From: Chlorobiaceae bacterium
Lineage (GTDB): Bacteria; Bacteroidota; Chlorobiia; Chlorobiales; Chlorobiaceae
Assembly: GCA_016927285.1 (NCBI GenBank)
Contig: JAFGMZ010000005.1
Span: forward strand, 1-36,060
DNA: 36,060 bases
Direction: 5' to 3'
This document shows positions 11,365-25,755 of the stretch, piece by piece. Position 1 is the stretch's first letter. Every line of letters begins with the position of its first letter. The notes beneath the pieces are model-generated. The model worked only from the letters and a program-made list of their open reading frames with translations, was not told the DNA's origin and did no database searches. Made by a program: the position numbers and the translations under genes.

Positions 11365-11403
11365 TGTCTCATAATAAGATGAAATGCGTTTTAAACTGAG
11401 ACA
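11365..11403. promoter_or_regulatory. Candidate upstream activator site for sRNA copy 1: TGTCTCA-N25-TGAGACA
   Basis: 7-bp inverted repeat arms at 11365-11371 and 11397-11403, centred about 108 bp upstream of the -24 GG. A second inverted repeat AACGCATT/AATGCGTT (11358-11365, 11383-11390) overlaps it. Confidence 0.4.
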
Positions 11404-11490: not shown

Positions 11491-11506
11491 TGGCATGGGG
11501 TTTGCA
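11491..11506 (+). promoter_or_regulatory. Sigma-54 (RpoN) -24/-12 promoter of sRNA copy 1
   Basis: TGGCATGGGGTTTGCA: GG-N10-GC, near-perfect match to TGGCAC-N5-TTGCA. Confidence 0.85.
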
Positions 11507-11515
11507 TTAAGTACT

Positions 11516-11614
11516 ATGAATATAAGAAGAGACTCCTCACGCCCGTGGGGATGATCAGGTGTAATGGGGGACATCTGATCAAGAAAAAAGCGGTTGCAAG
11601 ACCGCTTTTTTTTT
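11516..11614 (+). ncRNA. Structured sRNA copy 1 (Chlorobi-1-like): two hairpins plus intrinsic terminator
   Basis: Hairpin 1 CCTCAC-GCCC-GTGGGG (11535-11550). Hairpin 2 GATCAGGTGT-AATGGGGG-ACATCTGATC (11553-11580). Terminator AGCGGT-TGCAAG-ACCGCT + T8 (11589-11614). Start inferred about 11-12 nt after the -12 GC. Confidence 0.85.
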
Positions 11615-11710
11615 ATGCATTCCGATGGTTTCTGGCTGTGCTGATTGCATTTTGTGATTATAGGACATTATCGGAAAATGTGTGTCATGTTGAGATAATA
11701 ATAACCGGAT

Positions 11711-11732
11711 GAGACAGCGTGTCTCTTTTTTT
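11711..11732 (+). promoter_or_regulatory. GAGACA-GCG-TGTCTC + T7: candidate activator site for sRNA copy 2 and/or an intrinsic terminator
   Basis: Perfect 6-bp inverted repeat followed by a T-tract, centred about 116 bp upstream of the copy 2 -24 GG. Preceded by TGTCA-N3-TGAGA at 11683-11695. Confidence 0.5.
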
Positions 11733-11832
11733 ATGGGATTTTTTTACGAGGTTTGGTTATGATGCCGTAGTATGCATGTATATAGCTTTCTTTGTTGTGT
11801 TATTATCGTTTCGAGCGTGATGTGATGATTTC

Positions 11833-11848
11833 TGGCATGAAGTTTGCG
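11833..11848 (+). promoter_or_regulatory. Sigma-54 -24/-12 promoter of sRNA copy 2
   Basis: TGGCATGAAGTTTGCG, GG-N10-GC. Confidence 0.85.
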
Positions 11849-11857
11849 GATATAGTT

Positions 11858-11955
11858 ATGAATATAAGAAGAGACTCCTCACGCCCGTGGGGATGATCAG
11901 GTGTAATGGGGGACACCTGATCGAGAAGAAAGCGGCCGAAAGGCCGCTTTTTTTT
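11858..11955 (+). ncRNA. Structured sRNA copy 2 (Chlorobi-1-like)
   Basis: Hairpin 1 CCTCAC-GCCC-GTGGGG (11877-11892). Hairpin 2 GATCAGGTGT-AATGGGGG-ACACCTGATC (11895-11922). Terminator AAAGCGGCC-GAAA-GGCCGCTTT + T-tract (11929-11955). Confidence 0.87.
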
Positions 11956-12184
11956 CTGTTTGTCGATATAATGGGATGAAGTGCTCATTCAGGGGTAAAA
12001 CTGATGAAGCTGAGCAAGGAATCGGAATGAATGTCGCAACCTGAGGGCGCTCGCAATACTTGAGGATTTCAATCCGGGTTATTCGAAATAACGCTTTGGT
12101 CGGCAAGGGCAATAACTTTATTGCTCGTGAACTTCGGGCATTTCCGGAAATAGCGTGTCAGATTGAGACGGTGGGTGCTCGGAT

Positions 12185-12206
12185 GAGACAAAGTGTCTCT
12201 TTTTTT
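12185..12206 (+). promoter_or_regulatory. GAGACA-AAG-TGTCTC + T-tract: candidate activator site for sRNA copy 3 and/or an intrinsic terminator
   Basis: Same element as 11711-11732, centred about 118 bp upstream of the copy 3 -24 GG. Preceded by TGTCA-N3-TGAGA at 12156-12168. Confidence 0.5.
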
Positions 12207-12308
12207 GTGTGAGGGTTTTTAGCGTTGTTTATTCGAAACACAGTGAAATATATGTATATAGCTTTCTTTGTTGTGTTATTATCGTTTCGAGCGTGATGTG
12301 ATGATTTC

Positions 12309-12324
12309 TGGCATGAAGTTTGCG
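12309..12324 (+). promoter_or_regulatory. Sigma-54 -24/-12 promoter of sRNA copy 3
   Basis: TGGCATGAAGTTTGCG, identical to copy 2. Confidence 0.85.
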
Positions 12325-12333
12325 GATATAGTT

Positions 12334-12435
12334 ATAAATATATGAAGAGACTCCTCACGCCCGTGGGGATGATCAGGTGTAATGGGGGACACCTGATCAA
12401 GAAGAAAGCGGCCGCAAGGCCGCTTTCTTCTTGTT
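12334..12435 (+). ncRNA. Structured sRNA copy 3 (Chlorobi-1-like)
   Basis: Hairpin 1 (12353-12368) and hairpin 2 (12371-12398) identical to copy 2. Terminator stem extended to 15 bp, AAGAAGAAAGCGGCC-GCAA-GGCCGCTTTCTTCTT (12399-12432). Confidence 0.85.
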
Positions 12436-12738: not shown

Positions 12739-13677
<939 letters not shown>

Positions 13678-22722: not shown

Positions 22723-22931
22723 AATGATTTCTCCTTTTTCTGGTGGCGTTGAAATTGGATATTTTCAGGAAGTACACGGAGTTTATTCCTGTTAAATAAC
22801 AGCTTGTAATAAATTTAAAGAATAAAAATCAATAAATAAAGGAAAATATATCTCACCCTTTGACTCAAATGCATTGAATAATGTATACTGACTGCAGCTT
22901 TTCGTTTTTCCTGTAACTTGCCAAAAAATTC

Positions 22932-24554
22932 ATGAGCGTTAAATCAGGAAAATTATACGCGACAGCTTTAGTGCCTTTTAGTTTGCCGGTCCTCAGTGGT
23001 CTTTTGCTTGGCGTATCTTTTCCGTCATATCCTTTTATCCGCCTTGAGCTACTGGCCTGGGTAGGGCTCGTGCCTCTCTTGCTTTCGCTGAAACAGGATG
23101 ATTCGTTTGGGTCGGCATATCGCAAGATCTGGCTTTCGATGTTCGTTTTTTCTGTGCTTTCGCTCTGGTGGGTTTCACTTGCCACATTGCCGGGCGGAAT
23201 TCTTACTGTTATTGCCGAGTCTTTTTTTCTGACGGTTCCTTTTCTGCCTTTTTATCTAGCTATGCGCAGTGCCGGATTCCGTTATGCATTGTTGTCTCTG
23301 CCTTTTTTCTGGACCGCATGGGAGTGGGCCTATATGGGACAGGATCTTTCGCTTGGGTGGCTCACTTTTGGCAATTCGCAGGCCAATCTTGCCGGTATGA
23401 TACAGTATGCCGATATCACTGGTGTATGGGGGGTATCGTTCTGGCTGGTTTTGTTCAATGTGCTTGTTGTGATTTACTGGATGGAAAAAGATGTTGCCGC
23501 AGTGCGGCGACGAGTTCTCGCCGCGGCGGTCGTACTGATTGCCCTGCCGTATTTTTATGGCAGGCTTGTTTTCGGAGAGCGGGTCTCTCCAGGCGATTTG
23601 TCGGGGAGCGTGAGGGTGACGCTGGTTCAGCCGAATATTGATCCTTTCAGAAAGTGGGAGTTGCATACAGGTTCCGATATGATGGGGATTTTCTATCGCA
23701 TAACCGGCCGGGCTGTTTTTCGTGAGGTTCCGGATCTGGTTATCTGGCCGGAAACCGCTATTCCTTTTTTTATTCTCGATACAAGGTATAGCGGTTATTT
23801 TCAATCGCTGTATATGGCTGTCAGGGAGTGGCGTGTCGCTTTGCTGAGCGGTTTTTCCGATATCGAGTATTACCATCCGGCTTCTGAACGGGCAAAAAGC
23901 GGAAGGGTCAAGTTCGACAGTACCACCGGTCGGCATTTCGAGACTTTCAATGCATCCCTGATGATGAACGCTGACGGACGAAAGCCGCAGGTGTATCACA
24001 AGAACCGTCTGGTTCCGTTTGCTGAGCGGGTTCCATATGTCGATTATTTTCCATGGCTTGATCGGTTTACTTTTTCACTTGCAGGTATAAGCAGCTGGGG
24101 GCGAGGTACCGATACCCCGGTCATGAAGTTCAATACGAGAAGGAATGGAACGGTGGAAACCGCGAACATCATTTGTTACGAGTCGATTTTCCCCGGTCTT
24201 GTTACCGGCTTTGTCCGCAATGGAGCGGAGTTTCTTACGCTGGTTACCAACGATGGGTGGTATGCTACATCGTATGGTCCTTACCAGCATTTGGCTATAG
24301 CAAAACTGCGCTGCATCGAGAATCGGAGGGCTATGGCGAGATGCGCCAATACCGGCATCACTGCGTTTATCGACAGGTATGGGAGGGTTTACGATGACAT
24401 GCCGTGGTGGAAAGAGGGGACCCTGACGGCAGACGTCCCTCTTTACCGCGATATGACTTTGTATACTCGCTTCCCCGATCTGTTACCTAAAACATCGGTG
24501 GCAGTTTCCGTTCTGCTTCTCGTTGTTGCGTTCTCCGGCATAGTGCGTCGGTAA
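22932..24554 (+). CDS. lnt: Apolipoprotein N-acyltransferase
   Basis: N-terminal TM region plus nitrilase-like domain: VTLVQPNIDPFRKW, LVIWPETAIPF, YHKNRLVPFAERVPY, IICYESIFPGLV, TNDGWYATSYGPYQHL. Confidence 0.94.
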   Translation: MSVKSGKLYATALVPFSLPVLSGLLLGVSFPSYPFIRLELLAWVGLVPLLLSLKQDDSFGSAYRKIWLSMFVFSVLSLWWVSLATLPGGILTVIAESFFLTVPFLPFYLAMRSAGFRYALLSLPFFWTAWEWAYMGQDLSLGWLTFGNSQANLAGMIQYADITGVWGVSFWLVLFNVLVVIYWMEKDVAAVRRRVLAAAVVLIALPYFYGRLVFGERVSPGDLSGSVRVTLVQPNIDPFRKWELHTGSDMMGIFYRITGRAVFREVPDLVIWPETAIPFFILDTRYSGYFQSLYMAVREWRVALLSGFSDIEYYHPASERAKSGRVKFDSTTGRHFETFNASLMMNADGRKPQVYHKNRLVPFAERVPYVDYFPWLDRFTFSLAGISSWGRGTDTPVMKFNTRRNGTVETANIICYESIFPGLVTGFVRNGAEFLTLVTNDGWYATSYGPYQHLAIAKLRCIENRRAMARCANTGITAFIDRYGRVYDDMPWWKEGTLTADVPLYRDMTLYTRFPDLLPKTSVAVSVLLLVVAFSGIVRR

Positions 24555-24579: not shown

Positions 24580-25755
24580 TTAATTTCCTATTCCGTATGA
24601 TCTGATTTTGCGGTAGAGGGTTCGTTCGGTGATACCAAGGGTTTTTGCCGTCAGGCGTCTGCTGTTGTTATTGGCCTTGAGTGTGTCAATGATGGTCTGT
24701 TTTTCGATCTCTTCGAGCGATGAAGCGGTTTTGCTCGTTTCCTGATGCGGTTCTTCCGGTTCTGTGGCGGAAGCTGATGGCGTTCCTGCCGTTCCGCTTG
24801 TCTGCGATACAGGTCCCGGAAGCAGAAGCGGTGTCTGACGGGGCTGGTTGTTCAGCAGCATTTGCAGGAGTTGACGAATCTCGCTCATCTCCTGGCGAAG
24901 TTGAATGATACTGCTGTAGATCATGTTCAGTTCCTGTTTTTCGGATCGGGATGGATCATGTATCAGGCTTTTGTTCCGGCTTCGCTGAATGAGATGTTTT
25001 TCGAGGATCTCCGGCGTTATTTTGCGTCCTTTTTCGAGGACAAGCAGCGAATCGATAAGGTTTCGCAGTTCGCGGATGTTGCCGGGCCATGGATAACGAA
25101 GGAGCATGTCGGCGGCTTCTGCGGTGAATCCTTCGAAGGTTATGGCCTGACGTTGTTCTGATTCGCGGACAAAATGTTCGGTCAGTATCAGAATGTCCCG
25201 ACCTCGTTCACGCAATGGCGGAAGCTGGAGTTCGACGCTTCTGAGTCGGTAGTAGAGATCTTCACGGAATTTGTTTTCTGCTACTTCCTGGTAGAGATTT
25301 CTGTTTGTCGCTGCAATAACCCGTGCATCTGAATAGATGGTTTCGGAGGCGCCGACTCTCTGGAATTCTCCGCTTTCCAGAACTCGAAGGAATTTGACCT
25401 GCGTTTCGGGAGGCAATTCGCCGATTTCGTCCAGGAAAATGGTGCCGCGGTCAGCGCTTTCAAAGTATCCTTTCCGTGCCTGTACGGCGCCGGTAAACGA
25501 TCCTTTTTCATGGCCGAACAGTTCTGATTCAAGCAGTCCCGAGGGAATAGCTCCGCAATTGACGGGGATGAAGTTTTTTCCTGACCGTTTGCTGTTTTCG
25601 TGGATGAACCTGGCGAGAACCTCTTTTCCGGAACCGGTTTCGCCGGTTATCAGCACGCTGATATCCGTTTCGGCTACCTGCAGGGCAAGTTCCCGGAGAT
25701 GGATCATAAGGCTGGACTGACCGAGAAGCTGGTTGTGTTCTTTTGCGGGTTTCAT
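24580..25755 (-). CDS. Sigma-54-dependent transcriptional activator (AAA+ domain plus Fis-type HTH, no N-terminal sensory domain)
   Basis: GETGSGKEVLARFIH, ELFGHEKGSFTGAVQ (GAFTGA-loop variant GSFTGA), GTIFLDEIGELP, PWPGNIRELRN, C-terminal SSLEEIEKQTIIDTLKANNNSRRLTAKTLGITERTLYRKI. Confidence 0.95.
   Translation of the reverse strand: MKPAKEHNQLLGQSSLMIHLRELALQVAETDISVLITGETGSGKEVLARFIHENSKRSGKNFIPVNCGAIPSGLLESELFGHEKGSFTGAVQARKGYFESADRGTIFLDEIGELPPETQVKFLRVLESGEFQRVGASETIYSDARVIAATNRNLYQEVAENKFREDLYYRLRSVELQLPPLRERGRDILILTEHFVRESEQRQAITFEGFTAEAADMLLRYPWPGNIRELRNLIDSLLVLEKGRKITPEILEKHLIQRSRNKSLIHDPSRSEKQELNMIYSSIIQLRQEMSEIRQLLQMLLNNQPRQTPLLLPGPVSQTSGTAGTPSASATEPEEPHQETSKTASSLEEIEKQTIIDTLKANNNSRRLTAKTLGITERTLYRKIRSYGIGN

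What the first reader, a model, noticed from the sequence alone, without database searches (positions are those of the whole stretch)
11491..12324. Each sRNA copy has its own canonical sigma-54 promoter
TGGCATGGGGTTTGCA (11491), TGGCATGAAGTTTGCG (11833) and TGGCATGAAGTTTGCG (12309) all have exact GG-N10-GC spacing. All lie at the same distance (~12 nt from GC) from the conserved ATGAATATAAG or its equivalent. The promoter is conserved even where copy 1's flanks differ completely from copies 2 and 3. Multi-copy sigma-54-dependent sRNAs are known (Vibrio Qrr1-5 under LuxO; GlmY/GlmZ under GlrR). I know of no reported assignment of this control to a Chlorobiota sRNA family.
Basis: partly seen in the sequence, partly recalled or inferred. 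Interest (0 to 1): 0.9.

Follow-up and report, generated by a model that had tools for sequence, protein, structure and literature searches.

The report
Sigma-54-controlled RNA array in green sulfur bacteria
Three copies of a small RNA of unknown function in green sulfur bacteria each carry the kind of on-switch that needs a dedicated activator protein, and the genomes point to one activator and, in many species, a quorum-sensing input, a layout much like the cholera bacterium's cell-to-cell communication circuit but probably evolved separately.

Summary
The RNAs are three copies of Rfam RF01696 (Chlorobi-1), an orphan RNA described in 2010. Each has an exact TGGCAT-N5-TTGC -24/-12 element; the window has 4 such sites against 0.21 expected. 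The element is conserved before 50 of 56 good copies in the genus, against about 1% background. The same motif precedes nifH in this genome. Order-level homologues and a few copies lying just after a gene lack it, so the control is lineage-specific.

New here: about 70-200 bp upstream lies a recurring half-site, TGTCTCA/TGAGACA. One response-regulator-type sigma-54 activator ("EBP-c", encoded elsewhere in the genome) is present almost exactly where the sigma-54-driven RNA is (30 genomes with both, 26 with neither, 3 discordant). The two disappear together on the tree. In five genomes EBP-c sits beside a CqsA autoinducer synthase and a CqsS-like kinase.

Best explanation: EBP-c~P with RpoN transcribes a multicopy trans-acting sRNA, with alpha-hydroxyketone quorum sensing as one input. 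It works like LuxO-Qrr but is not a member: no Qrr match, no LuxO sites, no Hfq. CqsA/CqsS in Chlorobiaceae were already reported; I found no report of the link to an activator and sRNA. Target unknown; no expression data.

The parts
11491..11506 (+). -24/-12 sigma-54 promoter element, copy 1 (TGGCATGGGGTTTGCA)
11833..11848 (+). -24/-12 sigma-54 promoter element, copy 2 (TGGCATGAAGTTTGCG)
12309..12324 (+). -24/-12 sigma-54 promoter element, copy 3 (TGGCATGAAGTTTGCG)
11365..11370 (+). UAS half-site TGTCTC, copy 1
11398..11403 (-). UAS half-site GAGACA, copy 1 (33 bp from the other half-site)
11711..11725 (.). paired UAS half-sites GAGACA-N3-TGTCTC, copy 2 (could also be read as a terminator hairpin, a T-run follows)
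12185..12199 (.). paired UAS half-sites GAGACA-N3-TGTCTC, copy 3 (same ambiguity)
11516..11614 (+). Chlorobi-1 RNA copy 1: predicted start about 11516, RF01696 core 11529-11595, terminator about 11584-11614
   Evidence: RF01696 77.3 bits; two hairpins plus terminator with covariation; start inferred from -12 spacing
11858..11955 (+). Chlorobi-1 RNA copy 2: predicted start about 11858, core 11871-11937, terminator about 11929-11955
   Evidence: RF01696 75.3 bits
12334..12432 (+). Chlorobi-1 RNA copy 3: predicted start about 12334, core 12347-12413, terminator about 12400-12432
   Evidence: RF01696 78.7 bits
10271..11320 (+). aguA (agmatine deiminase), conserved upstream boundary of the RNA array
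12739..13671 (-). mdh (malate dehydrogenase), conserved downstream boundary of the RNA array

Best explanation
The array is a set of multicopy, independently transcribed, trans-acting small RNAs (Chlorobi-1). Each is made by RpoN (sigma-54) RNA polymerase from its own -24/-12 promoter. Transcription is switched on by one dedicated response-regulator activator, EBP-c (receiver, AAA+ with GSFTGA/GAFTGA loop, Fis-type HTH; G000:C156:49052-50506, outside the window), bound to TGTCTCA/TGAGACA half-sites upstream. In many species a CqsA-made alpha-hydroxyketone signal, sensed by a CqsS-like hybrid kinase that carries its own Hpt domain, feeds EBP-c; other kinases must feed it where CqsA is absent. 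The RNA most likely acts by base-pairing through the near-invariant UGGGGG loop of hairpin 2 with C-rich mRNA sites, without Hfq. Shown here: the RNA family and its structure, promoter and half-site conservation, and co-distribution and co-loss with EBP-c. Inferred: that EBP-c binds the half-sites, the phosphorelay, the quorum input, and the mode of action and targets of the RNA.
For: Promoter: a match of at least 8/10 to TGGCAC-N5-TTGC, placed 8-26 nt before the RNA model, occurs in 50 of 56 genus copies scoring 50 bits or more (52 with two 7/10 matches at the same place); random windows give 0.96%; copies fetched later as a check agree. nifH in the same genome has TGGCATGGCTTTTGC 104 nt upstream. 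rpoN is found in 29 of 31 genomes. Half-site: TGTNTCA/TGANACA lies before 41 of 58 promoters (shuffled mean 7.2, max 14); short spacings cluster at 9-12, 19-22 and 28-33 bp; no LuxO or NtrC sites and no NifA excess. Activator: 30 both, 26 neither, 1 RNA only, 2 EBP-c only among 59 genomes, Fisher p 2.4e-13. The RNA-only genome (G102) keeps just a gene-end copy with no promoter; one EBP-c-only genome (G169) has a frameshifted EBP-c without its HTH. On an aguA tree each trait changes 6 times and the 4 well-supported independent pairs agree (3.8 of 4 on average, none opposed). RNA-negative genomes mostly have a closed aguA-mdh gap of 13-185 bp against 318-1424 bp in positives. Quorum link: a CqsS-like kinase at 50% identity or more occurs in 21 of 32 EBP-c genomes and 0 of 27 others (p 3e-8); CqsA in 20 of 32 against 2 of 27 (p 1e-5); CqsA-kinase-EBP-c are adjacent in G010, G210, G232, G040 and G181. 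CqsA passes the NCBIfam equivalog cut-off (619 vs 428 bits). RNA: 24 of 26 pairs show two-sided changes while the hairpin-2 loop hardly varies.
Against: No transcription, binding or mutant data. The four well-supported independent pairs cannot reach significance on their own (p 0.125). G211 has an intact EBP-c but no RNA between aguA and mdh. About ten EBP-c/RNA genomes have no CqsA and no close CqsS-like kinase, so quorum input is not general. Half-sites are diverged or absent before some promoters (e.g. the G075 clade). The draft genome is 86% complete, so an unseen activator is possible. No conserved target was found.
Confidence: 0.82

Rival explanations
1. The promoters are sigma-54 promoters but a different activator drives them: the receiver-less activator in this window (24580-25755), or the GAF-type activator (G000:C29), for instance as part of nitrogen control.
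For: The draft genome has three bona fide activators, one of them 12 kb from the array. nifH shares the -24/-12 element.
Against: RNA-negative genomes keep other activators but not EBP-c. No NifA (TGT-N10-ACA) excess and no NtrC sites upstream of the RNAs; no half-site within 250 bp of the nifH promoter. Distribution of the window's receiver-less activator was not tested.
Confidence: 0.1
2. The -24/-12 elements are chance or mere relics of array duplication, and the RNAs come from a primary-sigma promoter.
For: Copies 2 and 3 share their flank. Order-level homologues lack the element, and some show primary-sigma-like elements by eye, e.g. TTGCAA-N17-TAGAAT in G133.
Against: The element is kept at a fixed place across unrelated flanks in about 30 genomes against 1% background.
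Confidence: 0.04
3. The RNA is a CsrA/Rsm-type titrator: its GGGGGA loop captures an RNA-binding protein, as RsmY/Z or CsrB do.
For: A GGA-containing hairpin loop is nearly invariant and the RNA is multicopy.
Against: CsrA is absent from 30 of 31 genomes, including every RNA-positive genome tested; the one hit is in an RNA-negative genome. Another RNA-binding protein (e.g. RRM type) is not excluded.
Confidence: 0.1
4. Sigma-54 and EBP-c control is right but the input is not quorum sensing; the CqsA/CqsS-like genes are neighbours in one clade only, and EBP-c reports another condition such as light or envelope state (it often sits beside a csmH-like chlorosome protein gene).
For: Ten or so EBP-c/RNA genomes lack CqsA and the close CqsS-like kinase. 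In most loci read, EBP-c lies beside csmH and dut rather than cqsA. RNA-CqsA pairs on the tree agree poorly.
Against: The CqsS-like kinase is found only in genomes with EBP-c (21/32 vs 0/27), and the three genes are adjacent in five genomes.
Confidence: 0.45

Closest known systems
Chlorobi-1 RNA (Rfam RF01696; Weinberg et al. 2010, PMC2864571)
   Same: The RNA itself: two hairpins plus terminator, all three copies well above the gathering score.
   Different: Not different; the 2010 main text gives no promoter, regulator or function. Promoter, half-site and activator are added here.
Vibrio CqsA/CqsS-LuxU-LuxO-Qrr1-5 quorum-sensing circuit
   Same: Multicopy sRNAs, each with its own sigma-54 promoter, a response-regulator activator, and in several genomes an adjacent CqsA and CqsS-like kinase.
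   Different: RNA unrelated to Qrr (no Rfam match), no LuxO-type sites, no Hfq, Hpt fused to the kinase, EBP-c scores far below the LuxO cut-off (335-361 vs 800 bits), signal genes missing in many genomes.
GlmY/GlmZ under GlrR/GlrK (Enterobacteria)
   Same: Sigma-54-driven sRNAs under a response-regulator activator; 4 of 58 upstream regions carry TGTC-N10-GACA, the GlrR-type site as I recall it.
   Different: Different RNAs and no evidence of a glmS target.
CqsA/CqsS genes reported in Chlorobiaceae (PMC5289986; PMC10158934)
   Same: The synthase and kinase pair noted here is of the kind already reported in Chlorobium and Prosthecochloris.
   Different: PMC10158934 never mentions LuxO, Qrr or sRNA; I found no report that links the pair to an activator or an sRNA.

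Membership tests
Chlorobi-1 RNA (RF01696) | covariance-model score above gathering (50 bits) | tested here: met
   78.7, 77.3 and 75.3 bits, full length 1-67
sigma-54 promoter | TGGCAC-N5-TTGC(A/T) with GG-N10-GC spacing | tested here: met
   9/10 consensus positions at all three copies; conserved in relatives
sigma-54 promoter | RpoN and an AAA+ activator encoded in the genome | tested here: met
   rpoN G000:C98; three activators
sigma-54 promoter | transcription lost without RpoN | not testable with these tools
   needs a deletion or in vitro transcription
Qrr sRNA family | homology to Qrr (Rfam) | tested here: not met
   only RF01696 above gathering at these loci; no Qrr match up to E = 1
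Qrr sRNA family | LuxO sites TTGCAN3TGCAA upstream | tested here: not met
   0 of 58 promoters
Qrr sRNA family | Hfq dependence | tested here: not met
   no Hfq gene in 31 genomes; the same search finds it in 5 control genomes
Qrr sRNA family | multicopy, one sigma-54 promoter per copy | tested here: met
   1-5 copies per genome; second members of g2 pairs lack the promoter
LuxO | NCBIfam NF041946 equivalog cut-off (800 bits) | tested here: not met
   335 and 361 bits; the AtoC and NtrC models score higher, also below cut-off
CqsA | NCBIfam NF005526 equivalog cut-off (428 bits) | tested here: met
   619 bits for G010; own-genome homologue C81:56-1270 is 70% identical; V. cholerae CqsA structure matched at 393 bits
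CqsS | membrane hybrid kinase beside cqsA | tested here: met
   hydrophobic N-terminus, HisKA/HATPase, two receivers, Hpt, beside cqsA; no curated CqsS model matched, so orthology is open
CsrA-titrating RNAs (CsrB/RsmY/Z) | CsrA encoded in the genome | tested here: not met
   1 of 31 genomes, an RNA-negative one

The most novel reading that the evidence does not exclude
Green sulfur bacteria run a full quorum-sensing circuit (CqsA signal, CqsS-like kinase with fused Hpt, sigma-54 response regulator, multicopy sRNA) with the logic of the Vibrio CqsA-CqsS-LuxO-Qrr pathway, but with an unrelated sRNA, unrelated DNA sites and no Hfq: a convergent assembly around a shared signal module.
Probability: 0.45. 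Interest if true: 0.9.

Novelty: new variant of a known kind. Interest (0 to 1): 0.78.

Why it matters
It gives an RNA family with no assigned function since 2010 a promoter, a candidate activator and a candidate signal, all testable in cultivable Chlorobium. If right, the multicopy-sRNA-under-sigma-54 design of Vibrio quorum sensing arose twice, the second time without Hfq, and known but output-less CqsA/CqsS genes of green sulfur bacteria gain an output.

Tried and rejected
CsrA titration: CsrA absent from the RNA-positive genomes tested. Hfq-dependent pairing: Hfq absent. NifA/NtrC control: no site excess. Small ORF reading: the ATG of ATGAATATAAG is lost in copy 3 and two-base length changes in the loop of relatives break any frame. 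Target search: C-runs complementary to the loop near cqsA and EBP-c starts are sporadic (6 of 30 cqsA genes), so not counted as evidence. EBP-c autoregulation: no consistent half-site or -24/-12 element before EBP-c, csmH, cqsA or the kinase. Weak RF01696 hits in G000:C82 and C70, G214:C52 and G156 were treated as false; G156 looks like a CRISPR repeat. Whole genomes are not available as files, so no genome-wide regulon or target scan was possible. The order-level genomes were not searched for EBP-c.

Full report
What is there. The three transcripts are copies of Chlorobi-1 RNA, Rfam RF01696, in the gap between convergent aguA and mdh genes. The family was described in 2010 without a function; the main text gives no promoter, and RF01696 occurs in no other paper of the library searched. 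Such a site is expected 0.21 times in the window and is found four times, three of them here; in the 1.93-Mb draft it is found 15 times against 8 for the reversed pattern.

Conservation of the promoter. RF01696 was searched in 198 genomes of the phylum and all 86 held genomes of the family and the upstream DNA was read. A match of at least 8 of 10 positions placed 8-26 nt before the RNA model occurs in 50 of 56 genus copies scoring 50 bits or more, and two more have 7 of 10 at the same place; the background is 0.96%. The four exceptions are three copies lying just after a conserved gene with an acidic C-terminus (G028, G189, G102) and G219. In the second genus 10 of 26 copies have the element; many of the rest are the second member of a closely spaced pair or belong to a divergent subfamily. 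None of the 8 hits outside the family has it (one, G156, is probably a CRISPR repeat), and G133 shows a primary-sigma-like TTGCAA-N17-TAGAAT by eye. Sigma-54 control is therefore a trait of Chlorobiaceae. nifH of this genome carries the same element 104 nt upstream, a positive control. Copies within arrays and closely related species are not independent, so counts of genomes and tree events matter more than counts of copies.

Upstream sites. GAGACAA/TTGTCTC and TGAGACA/TGTCTCA are the most enriched 7-mers upstream apart from A/T-rich and terminator words: 17-18 of 32 genomes against about 1 expected. In relaxed form (TGTNTCA) the half-site precedes 41 of 58 promoters against a shuffled mean of 7.2 and maximum of 14. 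Short spacings cluster at 9-12, 19-22 and 28-33 bp, as expected for sites on one face of the helix. No LuxO or NtrC sites are present and NifA-type sites are not in excess.

The activator. The draft genome has three bona fide sigma-54 activators; only one, EBP-c, has a receiver domain. Among 59 genomes of at least 95% completeness (counting the window's own, 86%), 30 have both the RNA and an EBP-c orthologue, 26 neither, 1 the RNA only and 2 EBP-c only (Fisher p 2.4e-13). The exceptions are informative: G102 keeps only a promoterless gene-end copy, and G169 has a frameshifted EBP-c that lacks its DNA-binding domain. G211 remains unexplained. On a tree of AguA each trait changes 6 times; of the 4 well-supported independent pairs 3.8 on average agree and none is opposed, although four pairs cannot reach significance alone. 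RNA-negative genomes mostly have a closed aguA-mdh gap, so most absences are real. EBP-c carries GSFTGA or GAFTGA and an HTH in every intact copy read. RpoN is near-universal, in RNA-negative genomes too, so loss of the RNA tracks EBP-c and not sigma-54.

The signal genes. In G010, G210, G232, G040 and G181 EBP-c sits beside a CqsA-family synthase (619 bits against a cut-off of 428; best solved relative CAI-1 autoinducer synthase) and a membrane hybrid kinase ending in an Hpt domain. The kinase at 50% identity or more is found in 21 of 32 EBP-c genomes and in none of 27 others; CqsA in 20 of 32 and 2 of 27. The window's genome has CqsA on another contig (C81:56-1270, 70% identical). About ten genomes with RNA and EBP-c lack both, so quorum sensing is at most one of several inputs. 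CqsA/CqsS in Chlorobiaceae were already known (PMC5289986, PMC10158934).

How the RNA may act. Two hairpins and a terminator are supported by two-sided changes in 24 of 26 pairs, while the UGGGGG of hairpin 2 hardly varies. That pattern fits a pairing seed or a protein site. Hfq is absent from 31 genomes and CsrA from 30 of 31, which argues against the two usual partners. C-runs near the start of some cqsA and EBP-c genes would pair with the loop, but only sporadically, so the target is open.

Verdict. By logic the system resembles LuxO-Qrr; by membership it is neither Qrr nor LuxO.

Noticed in passing
window 22766-22825 (+): Lnt RNA (RF01711) in front of an apolipoprotein N-acyltransferase-like gene at 22932-24554; a known Chlorobi cis-regulatory RNA.
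   Followed up: no
window 24580-25755 (-): Receiver-less sigma-54 activator downstream of a SPOR-like protein gene; a second activator only 12 kb from the array.
   Followed up: partly
L141 (G000:C12:7416-7430): TGGCACGGCTATTGC 93 nt before a secreted, fimbria-like gene cluster (a later ORF resembles a pilus chaperone): possible further sigma-54 target without the TGTCTCA half-site.
   Followed up: partly
L048, L054, L055: Chlorobi-1 copies about 20 nt after a conserved gene ending in an acidic tail (EDEDEDNG), with no -24/-12 element: probably 3'UTR-derived copies.
   Followed up: partly
L052, L056, L058, L060, L061 (genus g2): In g2 arrays sigma-54-driven copies are often followed at 70-145 nt by a second copy without the element, as if transcribed together or differently regulated.
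   Followed up: no
L063, L064, L065, L066, L069, L134: A second g2 subfamily with loop CCGUGGGGGAAC and no -24/-12 element; in four loci read it lies after a TerC-like transporter gene and a regulator gene.
   Followed up: no
L089, L093, L096, L190: Genomes G075, G189, G028 and G060 carry a second EBP-c paralogue closer to the CqsA-linked form although they lack CqsA; G090 also has two.
   Followed up: no
L087:6319-6924: A csmH-like chlorosome envelope protein gene directly precedes EBP-c in most loci read, a possible hint at a light-related role.
   Followed up: no
L092, L112, L115, L118, L140, L202: Runs of CCCCC near the cqsA start in 6 of 30 genes, complementary to the RNA loop; weak and not conserved.
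   Followed up: partly
L076 (G156:C70:200570-200628): A weak RF01696 hit outside the order is a repeated GTTCCCCACGCCTGTGGGGATGAACCG unit that looks like a CRISPR repeat, so weak hits of this family can mislead.
   Followed up: no
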